A DNA stretch of 58,352 nucleotides from Prevotella sp. Its GTDB lineage: Bacteria; Bacteroidota; Bacteroidia; Bacteroidales; Bacteroidaceae. The notes under the pieces were generated by a model. It made no database searches and was not told the origin of the DNA. It saw only the letters and a list, made by a program, of their open reading frames with translations. The translations under genes and the position numbers were made by a program. Shown here piece by piece: positions 2,952 through 58,117 of this stretch (positions within the stretch are counted from its first letter, which is position 1; each line of letters begins with the position of its first letter). The stretch covers positions 1 through 58,352 of the forward strand of contig JAFZAP010000060.1 in assembly GCA_017557185.1 (NCBI GenBank), written 5' to 3'.

Positions 2952-2978
2952 TCAACGTCTTTTTTCCCCTTGATTTAT

Positions 2979-3041
2979 ATGGAGCATTGCTCTGTACCTT
3001 ATGGAGCATTGCTCTGTATCATATGGAGCATAGCTCTATTC
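2979..3041. repeat. 22-base palindromic repeat array, 3 copies
   Basis: Three copies of a 13-base palindrome of the GGAGCATTGCTCT type begin at 2981, 3003 and 3025, exactly 22 bases apart. They lie between the DUF5715 stop and the ileS promoter. The same unit recurs at 21597-21721 and 37399-37543. Confidence 0.85.
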
Positions 3042-12928: not shown

Positions 12929-14434
12929 ATGCCTCAAACAAATCAGAATTCAAGCAGCAGACATTCATCTGCACCGATAGACAGTGCTTATGGTCATCTA
13001 CAACCACAAGCCACTGACATAGAGCGCGTCGTTCTTGGTGCGCTCATGATAGACAAGGATGCTTTCTCGATCGTCGCCGAGATAATCACTCCTGAGACCT
13101 TCTACGAACCTCGCCATCAGAAAATCTACACGGCCATCCGAACGCTCAACATGGATGACAAACCTGTTGACTTCATGACTGTCACGGAAGAACTGAAGCG
13201 AGAGGGCACAATCGACGATGTGGGCGGGGTGGCCTATATCATGGATCTGACGCAGCATGTAGCGTCGTCGGCTCACATCGAGTATCACGCTCATATCCTT
13301 GCGCAAAAATCATTGATGCGTCAACTCATCTCCTATACCAGCCGTATTCAGGAGAAGGCTTTCGACGACACCGTCGATCCCGATGAACTGATGCAGGAAG
13401 CCGAGGGCAGCTTGTTCGAGATATCGCAGAAGAACATGAAGTCCGACTATACGCATATCGACCCAGTCATTGAAAGGGCGGTTCAGATATTGCAAAAAGC
13501 TGCACAGAACACTTCTGGCCTTACGGGTGTCCCGACGGGGTATTCGAAGCTCGACGATATGACGGCAGGTTGGCAACCAAGCGACCTCGTCATCATTGCT
13601 GGCCGACCGGCTATGGGTAAGACCTCGTTTGCCCTGAGCTTGGCGAAAAACATTGCCGTCGATTATCGCCATCCCATCGCCTTCTTCTCATTGGAGATGA
13701 GTGCTGTTCAGCTCTGCAACCGCCTGCTGTCGAATGTCTGCGACATCAGTGGTAAGAAGCTGCAGAACGGTCAGCTTGATCGTGACGAATGGGAGCGTTT
13801 CGATCGTAATGTCAACAAGCTGCAAGGTGCTCCCATCTACATCGACGACACCCCAGGTCTTTCCATCTTCGAACTGCGCACAAAGGCACGCCGACTCGTA
13901 CGTGAGAAAGATGTGAAGATCATCATGATCGACTACCTGCAGCTCATGAATGCCAATGGTATGCGTTTTGGTAACCGTCAGGAAGAGGTGTCGACAATCT
14001 CGCGATCTCTGAAAGGTCTTGCCAAGGAACTCGATATTCCCATTTTGGCACTCTCGCAGCTCAATCGTGGCGTTGAGAACCGTGAGGGCAACGAGGGCAA
14101 GCGTCCGCAGCTCAGCGATCTTCGCGAGTCGGGAGCCATCGAGCAGGATGCCGATATGGTGCTGTTCGTGCATCGCCCCGAGTACTATCGCATCTTCCAG
14201 GACGACAAGGGTAACGACCTGCGTGGTATTGCGCAGATCATTATTGCCAAGCACCGTAAGGGTGGAACAGGCGATGTGAACTTGCGCTTTCAGGGCGATT
14301 TCACTCGCTTCGAGAATCCTGAGGACGGTTTCATTCCCCCCTTGTCCGATGGCGGCGGTGAGATTAAGGGCAGCCGGATGAATGGTGATGACATGCCTTT
14401 CGGAGTATCCGAGGAAATAACACCTGCTTTCTGA
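12929..14434 (+). CDS. dnaB: Replicative DNA helicase DnaB
   Basis: Hexameric 5'-3' helicase that unwinds DNA at the replication fork. N-terminal DnaB domain (about 30-130), then the RecA-like core: Walker A GRPAMGKTS (225-233), IAFFSLEMS, IIMIDYLQLM (Walker B region) and ALSQLNRGVE. The C-terminal 35 residues are acidic and glycine-rich. Length 501 is normal. I chose the ATG at 12929; an in-frame TTG at 12911 would overlap the promoter box. It has its own promoter and is followed by a strong terminator (14456-14501), so it is monocistronic. Confidence 0.95.
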   Translation: MPQTNQNSSSRHSSAPIDSAYGHLQPQATDIERVVLGALMIDKDAFSIVAEIITPETFYEPRHQKIYTAIRTLNMDDKPVDFMTVTEELKREGTIDDVGGVAYIMDLTQHVASSAHIEYHAHILAQKSLMRQLISYTSRIQEKAFDDTVDPDELMQEAEGSLFEISQKNMKSDYTHIDPVIERAVQILQKAAQNTSGLTGVPTGYSKLDDMTAGWQPSDLVIIAGRPAMGKTSFALSLAKNIAVDYRHPIAFFSLEMSAVQLCNRLLSNVCDISGKKLQNGQLDRDEWERFDRNVNKLQGAPIYIDDTPGLSIFELRTKARRLVREKDVKIIMIDYLQLMNANGMRFGNRQEEVSTISRSLKGLAKELDIPILALSQLNRGVENREGNEGKRPQLSDLRESGAIEQDADMVLFVHRPEYYRIFQDDKGNDLRGIAQIIIAKHRKGGTGDVNLRFQGDFTRFENPEDGFIPPLSDGGGEIKGSRMNGDDMPFGVSEEITPAF

Positions 14435-21447: not shown

Positions 21448-21753
21448 CATTCTACTCAGTTTTCTCACCATTTTGATGGCATTCCCTCCAACGAGTATCC
21501 TTCTTCATTTTGGGGTAAATGGTTTTGAATCACAAGACTCCGTAGACCTTATTGTGCATTGCTTCACACCAAAAGGAGCAATGGTTTAGACCAAAGAGAG
21601 CACTGCTCCCGATGATACAGAGCACTGCTCTATATACCTACGGAGCACTGCTCTATATACCTACGGAGCATTGCTCCAAAGGGTAGGGAGCATTGCTCCA
21701 TAACCTACAGAGCATTGCTCCAGTTGACAGGGAGAGATAAAAAAGGAGTGTTG
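21448..21753. other. 306-base intergenic region with palindrome array
   Basis: Convergent gap between the TPR gene and the DUF4861 gene. The right half is the six-copy array at 21597-21721. The left half (21448-21596) holds no gene or clear terminator that I can see, only a possible degenerate copy of the unit near 21575. Confidence 0.6.
21597..21721. repeat. 22-23-base palindromic repeat array, 6 copies
   Basis: Palindromes of the type AGAGCACTGCTCC / GGAGCATTGCTCC begin at 21597, 21619, 21642, 21665, 21687 and 21709. Arms covary (AGAGCA or GGAGCA with TGCTCT or TGCTCC), and linkers are short (9-10 bases). Same family as 2979-3041 and 37399-37543. Confidence 0.9.
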
Positions 21754-37330: not shown

Positions 37331-37398
37331 AATCATATACTCTAGTAGGAGACAAAAAGCATATAGTTGCCCAATTCTTTGTGATTTCCATAGTGTAC

Positions 37399-37543
37399 AG
37401 AGGCATGCTCCGTAGTGTACAGAGGCATGCTCCGTAGTGTATAGAGGCATGCTCCGTAGTGTATAGAGACGTGCTCCATTATGTATAGAGACGTGCTCCA
37501 TTATGTACAGAGACGTGCTCCATTATGTACAGAGACGTGCTCT
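37399..37543. repeat. 22-base palindromic repeat array, 7 copies
   Basis: Seven units with an exact 22-base period beginning at 37399, 37421, 37443, 37465, 37487, 37509 and 37531. The 13-base core is AGAGGCATGCTCC in the first three and AGAGACGTGCTCC/T in the rest; linkers are TGTA-containing 9-mers. It lies just beyond the stop codon of the leucine-rich repeat gene. Confidence 0.92.
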
Positions 37544-42558: not shown

Positions 42559-42660
42559 GGCCTGCGGCCGTTTAATGCGCTTCGCGCGGTTCAAAAGGTT
42601 CAAAGGCCTTCGGCCGTTCAAAAGGTTTAATGCGCCTGCGGCGCGGTTCAAAAGTTTAAG
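42559..42660 (+). repeat. GC-rich mini-hairpin repeat upstream of the cyclophilin gene
   Basis: Four hairpins in a row: GGCCTGCGGCC (42559), GCGCTTCGCGC (42577), GGCCTTCGGCC (42605) and GCGCCTGCGGCGC (42632), joined by linkers of the form GTTCAAAAGGTTCAAA or GTTCAAAAGGTTTAAT. The last linker ends 12 bases before the ATG at 42672. Same family as 36186-36242. Confidence 0.88.
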
Positions 42661-43362: not shown

Positions 43363-43480
43363 GAATAGTGATGAGTGAGTAGTGAATAGTTTATGATTTG
43401 CCATGTTTGTAGCGCTCATAAAACGAAACGCTGCCAGAAAGAGTAATCATAAACTATTCACTCTCAACTATCAACTAAAA
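43363..43480. repeat. Inverted heptamer tracts around a TTATGATT/AATCATAA core, convergent gap
   Basis: Left: four heptamers GAATAGT, GATGAGT, GAGTAGT, GAATAGT (43363-43390). Core: TTATGATT (43391-43398) to AATCATAA (43445-43452). Right: heptamers ACTATTC, ACTCTCA, ACTATCA, ACTAAAA (43453-43480, the last containing the SGNH stop). The 18 bases 43381-43398 and 43445-43462 are perfect reverse complements, so it may also act as a bidirectional terminator. Confidence 0.85.
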
Positions 43481-55685: not shown

Positions 55686-57218
55686 ATGACATACAAATTA
55701 GATAAGACGACTTTCGGTCTTTTCAAGACACTTCGCAAACATCGCAAACTGGCAGAAAAACGTGCCATCAACTACGAACAAAACAGAACGGCAAAAGTAC
55801 TGATGTACGTGCTGAGTGGCTTCATGATCGGCTACCTGATATTCTTTGCCGTCATGCTGGCGATGATCGCCAACGACATCGATTCAATGACAGCCGTCGA
55901 ACTCATGTTTGGCATCGCTCCGTTCGTACTGCTCATCGACTTCCTGTTCCGCTTCCTTGCTCAGCAGACACCTTCGCAAATTATCAAGCCGTACCTGCTG
56001 CAACCCATCCCGCGTGCCCTTTGCATCGATACCTTCATTTCCACATCGCTGTTCACGTGGGGTAATGTCATCTGGTTCGCTATGCTCATACCCTATGCCA
56101 TCATGTCGGTGGTCTTCAGCGAAGGCATCTGGGTGACGCTGGGCTTCCTCTTCTGCTACTACCTGCTCATCCTGGCCAACAGCCAGTGGTATGCCATCGC
56201 TCGCACTCTGATCAATCGCAGCGTGCTCTGGTGGCTGCTGCCCATCGCCGTCTATGCACTCATGGCCCTGCCTATTATTATAAAAGGTGGCAGCGAGAAA
56301 GGCTTTGAGAATTTCTTCGACCTCTTTGCGAGCATCGGAACAGGTATCAGCGAAGGTCATGTGTGGCCCTACCTGCTGGCAGCTGCCGTGTTGGCTGTGG
56401 TGGTAGCCATCAATCGTCGTGTGCAGATGGAAAGCATCATGGCCGAGGTGACGAAGACGGAGAAGACAACCCTGCATAGTGTTAGCCGCTTTGCATTCCT
56501 CGACCGCTATGGTGAGATTGGCCAATACATGAAGTTGGAGATTAAAACCATCATGCGCAACAAGAACCCGCGCAAGAGCTTCATCTTCGCTACAATCTTC
56601 GTGTTCCTAATCAGCTTGGCCATCGCTCTCACCGACGTTTACGACGGACAGTTCATGACCAACTTCTGGTGCATCTACAACTTTGTTGTCTATGGTGCCA
56701 TGATGCTCATCCGTGTGATGTGCAACGAGGGCAACTACATCGATTGCCTGATGGTGCGACGCGAGAACATCTTGAAGCTGTTGCGGGCGAAGTATTTCTT
56801 CTACTGCATCCTGTTGCTGTTGCCCTTCCTGCTCATGCTTCCCACCGTCTTCTCAGGCAAGTGGTCGCTGCTGATGCTGGTTGCATACGGACTGTTCACG
56901 GCAGGTTTCCAGTATTTCATCTGCCTACAGATGGCTGTCTACAACAAGCAGACAATCCCCTTGAACACGAAGTTCGTGAGCAAGAACGGCGTTGAGAACA
57001 ACTATTTCCAGGTGGTCGTACAGCTCGTGGCATTCTTCTTCCCGCTCTTGCTGATCAGCATTCTGCAGGCATTCCTCCCCGATCATGTTGCCTATACTAT
57101 CATGTTGGTGATAGGCCTTGCGTTCATCTTCACCCATCAGTTGTGGCTGCGCAACATCTATAACCGAATGATGCGTCGCAAGTACATACTGCTGGAAGGA
57201 TTCCGCAGCTCACGCTAA
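55686..57218 (+). CDS. DUF5687 family membrane protein, ABC-2-like permease
   Basis: 510 residues with about twelve membrane segments. N-terminal cytosolic part FKTLRKHRKLAEKRAINYEQN and a central EIKTIMRNKNPRKSF loop resemble ABC-2 exporter permeases (DUF5687). Such proteins usually pair with an ATPase gene; none is next to it here. Substrate unknown. It is followed by a 137-base repeat tract and kdsB. Confidence 0.75.
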   Translation: MTYKLDKTTFGLFKTLRKHRKLAEKRAINYEQNRTAKVLMYVLSGFMIGYLIFFAVMLAMIANDIDSMTAVELMFGIAPFVLLIDFLFRFLAQQTPSQIIKPYLLQPIPRALCIDTFISTSLFTWGNVIWFAMLIPYAIMSVVFSEGIWVTLGFLFCYYLLILANSQWYAIARTLINRSVLWWLLPIAVYALMALPIIIKGGSEKGFENFFDLFASIGTGISEGHVWPYLLAAAVLAVVVAINRRVQMESIMAEVTKTEKTTLHSVSRFAFLDRYGEIGQYMKLEIKTIMRNKNPRKSFIFATIFVFLISLAIALTDVYDGQFMTNFWCIYNFVVYGAMMLIRVMCNEGNYIDCLMVRRENILKLLRAKYFFYCILLLLPFLLMLPTVFSGKWSLLMLVAYGLFTAGFQYFICLQMAVYNKQTIPLNTKFVSKNGVENNYFQVVVQLVAFFFPLLLISILQAFLPDHVAYTIMLVIGLAFIFTHQLWLRNIYNRMMRRKYILLEGFRSSR

Positions 57219-57355
57219 TTGATAGTTGACAGTTGACAGTTGATAATTGATAGTTGATAGTTGATAGTTATGATTTCCAAGAGTAATCATAAACTCTTCA
57301 CTATAAACTCTTCACTATAAACTCTTCACTCTTCACTATAAACTCTTCACTATTC
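57219..57355. repeat. Inverted heptamer tracts around a TTATGATT/AATCATAA core, ending at the kdsB start
   Basis: The whole 137-base gap is repeat: seven TTGATAG-type heptamers (57219-57267), a 25-base core TTATGATT...AATCATAA (57268-57292), then nine heptamers of ACTCTTC, ACTATAA or ACTATTC (57293-57355). The ninth abuts the kdsB ATG. Same core ends and same heptamer phase as 43363-43480. Confidence 0.9.
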
Positions 57356-58117
57356 ATGAAATTCATCGCAATCATTCCTGCCCGCTACGCCTCGACGCGC
57401 TTTCCAGGCAAGCCGTTGGCCCTTCTTGGAGGCAAGCCCGTCATACAAAGAGTTTGTGAACAAGTGTCATCGGTACTCGACGATGTCTATGTGGCCACCG
57501 ACGACGACCGCATCTTCCAGGCTGTTGAAGCTTTTGGGGGGCATGCGGTAATGACCTCTCCCAATCATCGAAGCGGTACCGACCGCCTGCAGGAAGCAGC
57601 CACGACGATTGGTACAGATGCCGATGTGGTGATCAATGTGCAGGGCGACGAACCGTTCATTCATCCCTCACAGATAGAGGCACTCTGTCGTTGCTTCGAC
57701 AATCCCACCACGCAGATTGCCACGTTGGGCAAGCCTTTCACGGATATGGAGTCGGTGAAGAATCCCAACTCGCCGAAGATTGTAGTCGACCAGCAGGGCT
57801 TTGCACTTTATTTCTCGCGTAGCGTCATTCCTTTTGTACGGGGTGTTGACGAAGCAGAGTGGCTGGGGCGCTATCCGTTCTTGAAGCACATCGGCCTTTA
57901 TGCCTATCGTCGGGAGGTGCTGCGTGAAGTCACCCAGCTACCCCCGTCATCACTCGAGGTGGCCGAGAGCCTTGAGCAGCTGCGTTGGTTGCAGAACGGC
58001 TATCGCATTCGTGTGGCAGAAACAAATATCGAGACCGTAGGCATCGATACTCCCGACGATCTCGCACGTGCCGAAGAGTTCCTCCAAGAATTGACAGAGA
58101 GACAAAGAGAGATATAG
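57356..58117 (+). CDS. kdsB: 3-deoxy-manno-octulosonate cytidylyltransferase KdsB
   Basis: Activates Kdo with CTP for lipopolysaccharide inner core synthesis in the cytosol. 253 residues: IIPARYASTRFPGKPL (CTP site, 7-22), VATDDDRI, TSPNHRSGTDRL, INVQGDEPFI, SRSVIPF and KHIGLYAYR. Complete. The start codon directly follows the heptamer tract, so there is no Shine-Dalgarno sequence. Confidence 0.96.
   Translation: MKFIAIIPARYASTRFPGKPLALLGGKPVIQRVCEQVSSVLDDVYVATDDDRIFQAVEAFGGHAVMTSPNHRSGTDRLQEAATTIGTDADVVINVQGDEPFIHPSQIEALCRCFDNPTTQIATLGKPFTDMESVKNPNSPKIVVDQQGFALYFSRSVIPFVRGVDEAEWLGRYPFLKHIGLYAYRREVLREVTQLPPSSLEVAESLEQLRWLQNGYRIRVAETNIETVGIDTPDDLARAEEFLQELTERQREI

What the first reader, a model, noticed from the sequence alone, without database searches (positions are those of the whole stretch)
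57219..57355. Operon gap made wholly of heptamers, in inverted orientation around a palindromic core, running into the kdsB start codon
Seen directly: seven TTGATAG-type 7-mers, a 25-base core TTATGATT...AATCATAA, nine ACTCTTC/ACTATAA 7-mers, then ATG. The right units are reverse complements of the left type (consensus NNNNAGT against ACTNNNN). The gap contains nothing else, so the kdsB leader is repeat. Heptanucleotide tandem repeats (STRR) are known in cyanobacteria; I know of no described Bacteroidales system with paired arms and a shared core. Copy number change could tune translation or form a variable hairpin. This is the clearest example of a class found in many gaps here.
Basis: partly seen in the sequence, partly recalled or inferred. 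Interest (0 to 1): 0.75.

Follow-up and report, generated by a model that had tools for sequence, protein, structure and literature searches.

The report
Shrunken selfish gene ends between genes
The short repeats filling the gap before kdsB look like the leftover inverted ends of a small selfish genetic element whose full copies carry one gene (S23p/IVP), and similar seven-letter repeats flank that gene in very distant bacteria, which offers a testable origin for a long-unexplained class of bacterial repeats.

Summary
57219-57355 is 7 heptamers (TTGATAG type), a 25-nt core with a perfect 8-bp palindrome, then 9 heptamers (ACTCTTC/ACTATAA), flush with the upstream stop and the kdsB ATG. It is one of many period-7 arrays in gaps of this Prevotella-like genome.

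The core is two 'caps' (TTATGATT-type) face to face. In the nearest relative found (RUG178) the gap has the same arms and an identical core but other heptamer numbers and letters. Elsewhere in RUG178 the same heptamers and cap, inverted, flank a PF05635 gene (S23p). The own-genome copy of that element has lost ~160 nt of the gene. Tandem 7- or 8-mers flank S23p genes across Bacteroidales (28 of 34; kdsB 2 of 25) and plasmids of five phyla (21 of 22; other CDS 7 of 143), mostly as inverted pairs.

Best reading: an ORF-less relic of an IVS-like selfish element in an operon gap. A tuning hairpin is not supported: the RNA fold is no better than shuffles. Movement, RNase III cleavage and any effect on kdsB are untested.

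The parts
55686..57218 (+). upstream gene, 510 aa, no NCBIfam match; its stop TAA (57216-57218) abuts the left arm
57219..57267 (+). left arm: seven heptamers of TTGATAG type
57268..57292 (.). core: two caps face to face; TTATGATT/AATCATAA is a perfect 8-bp inverted repeat with a 9-nt spacer; identical over 28 nt (57268-57295) in RUG178
57268..57278 (+). left cap TTATGATTTCC
57277..57295 (-). right cap AGTTTATGATTACTCTTGG, overlapping the left cap; TTATGATTACTCTT is shared with the S23p element of RUG178 (L331 5235-5733)
57293..57355 (-). right arm: nine heptamers (ACTCTTC, ACTATAA, ACTATTC on the + strand) ending at the kdsB ATG
57356..58117 (+). kdsB, 3-deoxy-manno-octulosonate cytidylyltransferase, 253 aa
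43353..43477 (.). second ORF-less element of the same design in this window, between two convergent genes: arms with caps facing inward at 43388-43400 (+) and 43455-43443 (-); its arms do pair well (duplex z -6.5)

Best explanation
The kdsB gap is an ORF-less (miniature or decayed) copy of a small selfish element. Full copies are [tandem 7- or 8-mers][cap]-S23p/IVP gene-[cap][the same repeats inverted] and sit between genes, often inside operons. Shown: the anatomy; that such repeats go with this gene family across phyla; a shared cap and heptamer type between the kdsB arms and an intact S23p element in the nearest relative found; and an intermediate in the own genome with a deletion in the S23p frame. 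Inferred: that the element is selfish and mobile, like the 23S rRNA intervening sequences (IVS) that encode the same protein inside a stem-loop; that in an operon transcript the paired arms form a stem that RNase III could cut; that S23p, a multimeric four-helix-bundle protein, acts on the repeats; and that after loss of the gene the arms keep changing by slippage one heptamer at a time, which would explain the loose pairing, the species-specific letters and the filling of the gap from stop to start. For kdsB itself I expect little or no regulatory role.
For: RUG178 (L109): same gap, same inward arms, identical 28-nt core although flanking DNA is 81% identical, 5 left heptamers instead of 7, AATTGAT letters instead of AGTTGAT. 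RUG178 L331 5235-5733 and 15683-16154: caps facing each other across open frames of 138 and 132 aa that match PF05635 (E 4e-22, 8e-23). The own-genome orthologue of the first (C56, L080 1046-1391) keeps flanks, arms and caps but lacks about 160 nt of the S23p frame; a 72-codon frame is left and the place is not among the 7 TIGR02436 matches of the genome. Of 8 exact AGTTTATGATTAC in the own genome, 6 score as directly following a period-7 run, a 7th (L204) shows heptamers by eye, the 8th (L206) does not. 34 S23p loci (of 35 tried): 28 have a dominant flank period of 7 or 8, against 180 of 1204 genes of two genomes and 2 of 25 kdsB loci; inverted-repeat score 11-46 against 7-15 for 25 kdsB loci; own pair beats all 6 cross pairs in 26 of 34. 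Unit length clusters on a quick protein tree of 33 (9 changes, shuffled 12.6, 0 of 200 as low; period 7 alone 1 of 500, period 8 alone 33 of 500). 22 plasmid S23p loci (of 26 records) in Cyanobacteriota, Spirochaetota, Bacillota, Bacteroidota, Chloroflexota: period 7 best in 22, strict label 21 of 22 against 7 of 143 CDS on four of the plasmids; inverted-repeat score of 26 or more in 16 of 22 against 0 of 143. Array and S23p counts correlate over 60 genomes (rho 0.65). The Coxiella rRNA IVS is reported to carry tandem heptamers before its S23p start, in numbers that differ between strains (PMC4990558, section 16 read).
Against: The kdsB arms pair no better than shuffles as RNA, so this copy is not a good stem. 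Arrays far outnumber S23p genes in the own genome (45 noncoding arrays in 1.03 Mb; 7 S23p matches, two of them short and weak, in 3.35 Mb). Genome G018 has 131 AGT-array matches and no S23p match, G010 10 and none. Most array gaps are not paired inward arms (20 of 60). The cap's excess over its reversed control is not specific: 17 to 2 in the own genome, but also 14 to 2 and 13 to 2 in genomes with almost no arrays (G041, G038). My scan for cap pairs looked only for facing pairs, so facing is not a tested rule. Relatives with empty gaps share no flank that would show a clean insertion site, and no target duplication was seen. One genome per species; no movement seen. 4 of 34 Bacteroidales S23p loci have no clear period, 2 have period 10, and 8 of 34 do not beat their cross pairs. 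Counts over related genomes are not independent. The genome is a draft assembly, so array lengths may carry errors.
Confidence: 0.7

Rival explanations
1. Arrays first: heptamer arms arise by slippage and fold-back copying in gaps, a host or neutral feature, and the S23p gene is a later passenger that settles inside ready-made inverted arrays.
For: Arrays greatly outnumber S23p genes; G018 has many arrays and no S23p match; most array gaps are not inward pairs; arms without a core exist in the same gap of L103.
Against: Unit length clusters with the S23p clade; the two arms of one S23p locus usually match each other better than arms of other loci (26 of 34 and 19 of 22); 10 of 12 genomes without S23p have 2 or fewer AGT-array matches.
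Confidence: 0.18
2. A translational or mRNA-processing control element for kdsB whose heptamer number tunes expression.
For: Flush with stop and start; number differs in heptamer steps between near relatives; core unchanged over 28 nt where flanks are 81% identical (chance about 0.3% at that rate).
Against: RNA fold z 0.03; 13 of 17 relatives with the gene pair have no array there; similar arms stand beside many unrelated genes.
Confidence: 0.06
3. Plain slippage-grown microsatellite debris (long simple sequence repeats) with no element behind it.
For: Heptamers were the most abundant repeat-unit class in most genomes of an older survey (Mrazek 2007, seen only as described in a passage of PMC4679880).
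Against: Slippage alone explains neither the inverted pairs with shared caps nor the tie to S23p genes across phyla.
Confidence: 0.06

Closest known systems
23S rRNA intervening sequences (IVS) with an S23p/IVP gene, as described for Coxiella (PMC4990558)
   Same: One small S23p gene enclosed by complementary ends; copies with a damaged frame (a 176-bp deletion is reported in one strain); tandem heptamers before the gene with varying copy number
   Different: Here the copies lie between protein genes, not in rRNA helices; the arms are long tandem 7- or 8-mers; the kdsB copy has no gene and poor stem pairing
Heptamer repeats of Beggiatoaceae, Cyanobacteria and Bacteroidetes (TAACTGA, MacGregor 2015, PMC4679880) and cyanobacterial STRR (recalled)
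   Same: Tandem degenerate heptamers in gaps, close to start codons, strain-specific sets, patchy distribution
   Different: Described mainly as direct repeats and possible regulator sites, perhaps carried by an unknown mobile element; S23, four helix, 23S rRNA and intervening sequence do not occur in that text
MITEs (non-autonomous miniatures)
   Same: ORF-less copies with the ends of a longer gene-bearing element
   Different: No transposase, no target duplication seen, ends are variable arrays
REP/BIME/REPIN palindromic repeats (recalled)
   Same: Dispersed intergenic inverted repeats of mosaic build
   Different: Arms here are period-7 arrays around an S23p gene; a link to RAYT transposases was not tested

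Membership tests
23S rRNA IVS | inserted in an rRNA helix | tested here: not met
   lies between two protein genes; no Rfam match in the window
23S rRNA IVS | terminal inverted repeats able to form a stem | tested here: inconclusive
   full S23p elements: duplex z below -3 in 19 of 34; kdsB copy: only the 8-bp core pairs well, arm duplex z -0.3
23S rRNA IVS | encodes S23p (not in all IVS) | tested here: not met
   no S23p frame in the 137-nt kdsB gap; PF05635 frames inside the matching elements of RUG178
23S rRNA IVS | excised by RNase III | not testable with these tools
   needs RNA work
STRR/heptanucleotide arrays | tandem, degenerate 7-nt units, intergenic | tested here: met
MITE | ORF-less with the same ends as a longer gene-bearing element | tested here: met
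   cap TTATGATTACTCTT (own genome and RUG178) and, in RUG178, AATTGAT heptamers shared with L331 5235-5733
MITE | target-site duplication and a transposase in the parent | tested here: not met
   ends flush with stop and start, no direct duplication seen; the parent frame is PF05635
Phase-variable simple repeat | copy number varies within a population | not testable with these tools
   only between-species change seen

The most novel reading that the evidence does not exclude
Heptanucleotide repeats of bacteria, including the cyanobacterial STRR and the Beggiatoaceae TAACTGA arrays, are largely the inverted ends and debris of one ancient, cross-phylum class of selfish elements built around S23p/IVP. 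These elements live in operon gaps as RNA stem-loops, are recognised by the S23p multimer through their repeat unit (7 or 8 nt by protein clade), and perhaps spread through an RNA step.
Probability: 0.35. Interest if true: 0.92.

Novelty: new variant of a known kind. Interest (0 to 1): 0.78.

Why it matters
Heptamer repeats and the S23p/IVP gene (named in the databases as a four helix bundle protein or 23S rRNA-intervening sequence protein; no known function according to PMC4990558) are both unexplained. If they are two parts of one element, each explains the other: the repeats have a source, the protein has a likely target, and IVS stop being a curiosity of rRNA genes. The prediction is checked easily: wherever there is an S23p gene, inverted 7- or 8-mers should flank it.

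Tried and rejected
RNA hairpin as the function of the kdsB gap: fold no better than shuffles, arm duplex z -0.3 in the own genome, +1.7 in RUG178 and -0.3 in L103. Rfam: no match in the window. A stop-codon trap (arrays carrying stops after a gene): considered; units of G008 such as AGTTCAC carry few stops, so not general, though stop codons do tend to lie in register with arrays (G028: TGA in 10 of 16 array-adjacent stops against 83 of 346; G008: TAG 6 of 10 against 22 of 90; own genome: TAG 8 of 28 against 105 of 510, a weak difference). Orientation rule (AGT reading outward from a gene end): leaving out the stretches picked for hits (G000b), it holds at stops 18 of 20 (14 more undecided) and at starts 7 of 8 (8 undecided). 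Two 20-kb pieces of the remaining set (L090, L093) had also been picked for hits. At stops the rule is partly ascertainment, because ACT-oriented arrays are open in all frames and would be called coding (inference). The start-side number is small; the own genome alone gave 0 for and 1 against. Cap read as a start codon (ATG ATT AC.): not general, since the inner border in G023 is TTTGCTACCGC. Matching between the two arms of array gaps: own pairs beat cross pairs in only 11 of 20 inward gaps. A search of viral contigs with the S23p pair gave 1 locus, not used. PHROGs and PADLOC: no match for the two S23p proteins. First gene calling missed kdsB and was replaced. Searches picked no frame or wrong frames for some S23p loci and were replaced; one search stopped with an error after 21 loci, so the RUG178 cap loci were not listed that way.

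Full report
1. What is there. The gap between a 510-aa gene (stop 57216-57218) and kdsB (ATG 57356) is 137 nt: seven left heptamers, a 25-nt core with a perfect 8-bp inverted repeat, nine right heptamers. Its lag-7 identity is 0.66 against at most 0.415 in 2000 shuffles.

2. A class, not a single case. In intergenic sequence of the window and 20 stretches (168 gaps used) lag 7 is the strongest of lags 2-30 (z 12.5; next 7.9 at 22 and 7.2 at 8). In the window plus stretches not picked for hits (587 kb), 26 arrays lie in 26 of 300 gaps (lag-7 z 18.3); in relatives G028 and G008 the z values are 16.3 and 17.0. Over 983 kb, part of it picked because it held hits, 69 noncoding period-7 arrays were found (26 more were called coding) against 0 in each of three shuffled sets of gaps, and at most 13 noncoding for any other period from 4 to 12. 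Of 60 genomes (own and 59 relatives), 48 hold at least one AGTN4 array match, from 0 to over 270 per genome, with letters that differ by species; the reversed control pattern was as frequent or more so in many, so AGT is not the only register. By G-C skew of the halves, 20 of 60 array gaps look like inward pairs, 5 the opposite, 29 same strand; gaps without arrays show no such bias (77 against 70).

3. The gap in relatives. A scan with the upstream protein kept 80 loci of 88; 17 have kdsB next. Of these, RUG178 (L109, upstream protein 92% identical) has both arms and the core, L103 both arms without the core, L101 and L102 a left arm, and 13 no period-7 segment, with gaps of 11-158 nt. In another set, 20 of 30 kdsB loci could be read with an upstream gene; period-7 segments occur in 2 of the 20, the own genome and G059. 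Against RUG178 the core is identical over 28 nt while flanking DNA is 81% identical; the left arm has 5 instead of 7 units, and the letters changed together from AGTTGAT to AATTGAT.

4. The core is two caps. In the own genome some arrays end on their inner side with AGTTTATGATTAC. There are 8 exact copies: 6 score as following a period-7 run, a 7th (L204, the second window element) shows heptamers by eye, the 8th (L206) does not. At one mismatch there are 17 sites against 2 of the reversed control, and 16 against 3 in RUG178; but similar excesses occur in some genomes with almost no arrays (G041 14 to 2, G038 13 to 2), so the number alone proves little. In stretches not picked for hits only a few arrays have the cap, so it marks one subfamily. 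Facing pairs of caps were found at both window places, at L083 12119-12261 (L213/L214) and at two places of RUG178, and by eye in G028 L249 and, with another cap, in G023 L244 and L247. The scan looked only for facing pairs, so it does not test how often caps face each other.

5. The gene between the caps. In RUG178 two cap pairs stand about 415 bp apart and enclose open frames of 138 and 132 aa that match PF05635, 23S rRNA-intervening sequence protein, also called S23p or four helix bundle protein (E 4e-22 and 8e-23; solved chain 2rld_A, E 8e-32). One of them has AATTGAT heptamers and the cap TTATGATTACTCTT, as at the RUG178 kdsB gap. The orthologous place in the own genome (C56, L080) keeps flanking genes, arms and caps, but about 160 nt of the S23p frame are missing; a 72-codon frame remains and TIGR02436 does not find it. 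I read this as an intermediate between a full element and an ORF-less one such as the kdsB gap. A further example, G028 C1 (L250), has AGTTAGG runs on one side and their inverse on the other of a TIGR02436 match.

6. Is the tie general? TIGR02436 matches occur in 48 of 60 genomes, 7 in the own genome. For 34 of 35 S23p loci (30 genomes, one each, plus five extra; L343 gave no frame) I compared about 200 nt on either side of the gene. Inverted-repeat scores were 11-46, against 7-15 for 25 kdsB loci, and the true pair beat all six cross pairs in 26 of 34. Flank period was 7 in 19, 8 in 9, 10 in 2 and unclear in 4. With the same rule, 180 of 1204 genes of G000 and G028 have period 7 or 8, and 2 of 25 kdsB loci period 7 (one more has 9) (Fisher 2e-17 against the 1204). 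Period clusters on a quick protein tree (9 changes, shuffled mean 12.6, 0 of 200 as low; period 7 alone 1 of 500, period 8 alone 33 of 500; 33 rows, one odd long row dropped). Arm duplex energies are below z -3 in 19 of 34.

7. Outside Bacteroidales. A protein search of plasmids with one S23p gave 26 records, 21 of them cyanobacterial. I fetched 22 (left out H9, H21, H24, H26). Period 7 is the best period in 22 of 22 (one, L380, only just), and the true arm pair beats all five cross pairs in 19 of 22, for example AATTCGT runs on both sides in Nostoc C052 and Dolichospermum. By the strict label it is 21 of 22 against 7 of 143 CDS in 40-kb stretches of four of these plasmids; inverted-repeat score of 26 or more in 16 of 22 against 0 of 143. 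For two of the 22 (L367, L378) the gene is not annotated and its ends were estimated from the match. Some genes sit between neighbours such as cas2 and cas1, hsdS and hsdR, drmD and mmeI.

8. What is known. MacGregor (PMC4679880; abstract, sections 12 and 24, passages) described TAACTGA heptamers in Beggiatoaceae, Cyanobacteria and five Bacteroidetes, considered a mobile source and found no mechanism. The Coxiella IVS paper (PMC4990558; abstract, sections 3, 16, 19, passages) describes an S23p frame inside a stem-loop in 23S rRNA, tandem heptamers before its start with copy number differing between strains, and a large deletion in the frame of one strain. Of three further papers I saw passages only (PMC5524665, PMC3542288, PMC4853749). 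Ten library searches (listings capped at 20) showed me no paper that links S23p genes to heptamer arrays outside rRNA; the library lacks preprints and most subscription journals.

9. Reading. The kdsB tract is best seen as an ORF-less relic of an IVS-like element in an operon gap. Shown: anatomy, association, a place with a shortened S23p frame, heptamer-step differences between species. Inferred: selfishness, mobility, RNase III processing, recognition by S23p. Against it: poor pairing of this copy, many more arrays than S23p genes, most array gaps not being inward pairs, and genomes with arrays but no S23p match. The count correlation over 60 genomes (rho 0.65; 0.58 within the genus) is not corrected for kinship. 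On rechecking I lowered the best reading from 0.72 to 0.70, because the cap excess is less specific than I had first written and facing of caps was not tested; the arrays-first rival is at 0.18.

Noticed in passing
window 2977-3037, 21616-21734: Tandem 22-23-mers with a GGAGCATTGCTCC-like palindrome, another intergenic repeat class; may account for the lag-22 peak.
   Followed up: no
window 42570-42659; L201, L207, L208 behind the caps: GC-rich palindromic repeats of the form TTGAACCGCGNCGNNGNCGCA / TTCGGCCGTTCAA stand in gaps, some next to heptamer arms; gaps here are mosaics of several repeat classes.
   Followed up: no
window 37387-37542: About seven tandem 22-mers TCCATAGTGTACAGAGACGTGC next to a long gene on the minus strand.
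   Followed up: no
L079 about 13105-13262 against G060 C31 58094-58124: At one orthologous gap the own genome has an arm, a cap and a GTAGGGGCAGACCCCCGTGTCTGCCC hairpin where RUG178 has about 30-50 nt; a very similar hairpin is inside L213.
   Followed up: partly
own genome, many contigs: AGTATATAATTAC occurs at least 18 times as an exact 13-mer in a capped list; looks like part of another repeat family.
   Followed up: no
L374, L379, L381, L367, L382, L384: S23p genes sit inside or beside defence genes on plasmids (cas2/cas1, hsdS/hsdR, helicase/methylase, drmD/mmeI); L376 and L377 neighbour XisI and XisH, whose distribution MacGregor noted as similar to that of heptamer repeats.
   Followed up: no
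S23p loci L334, L336, L337, L341, L344, L346, L350, L353, L361: These carry 8-mer instead of 7-mer arms, clustered in some clades; intergenic lag 8 is high in G008 (z 14.3) and G028 (z 9.3).
   Followed up: partly
G000 contigs C3 and C13 (L041, L051): Read as N throughout; not used.
   Followed up: no
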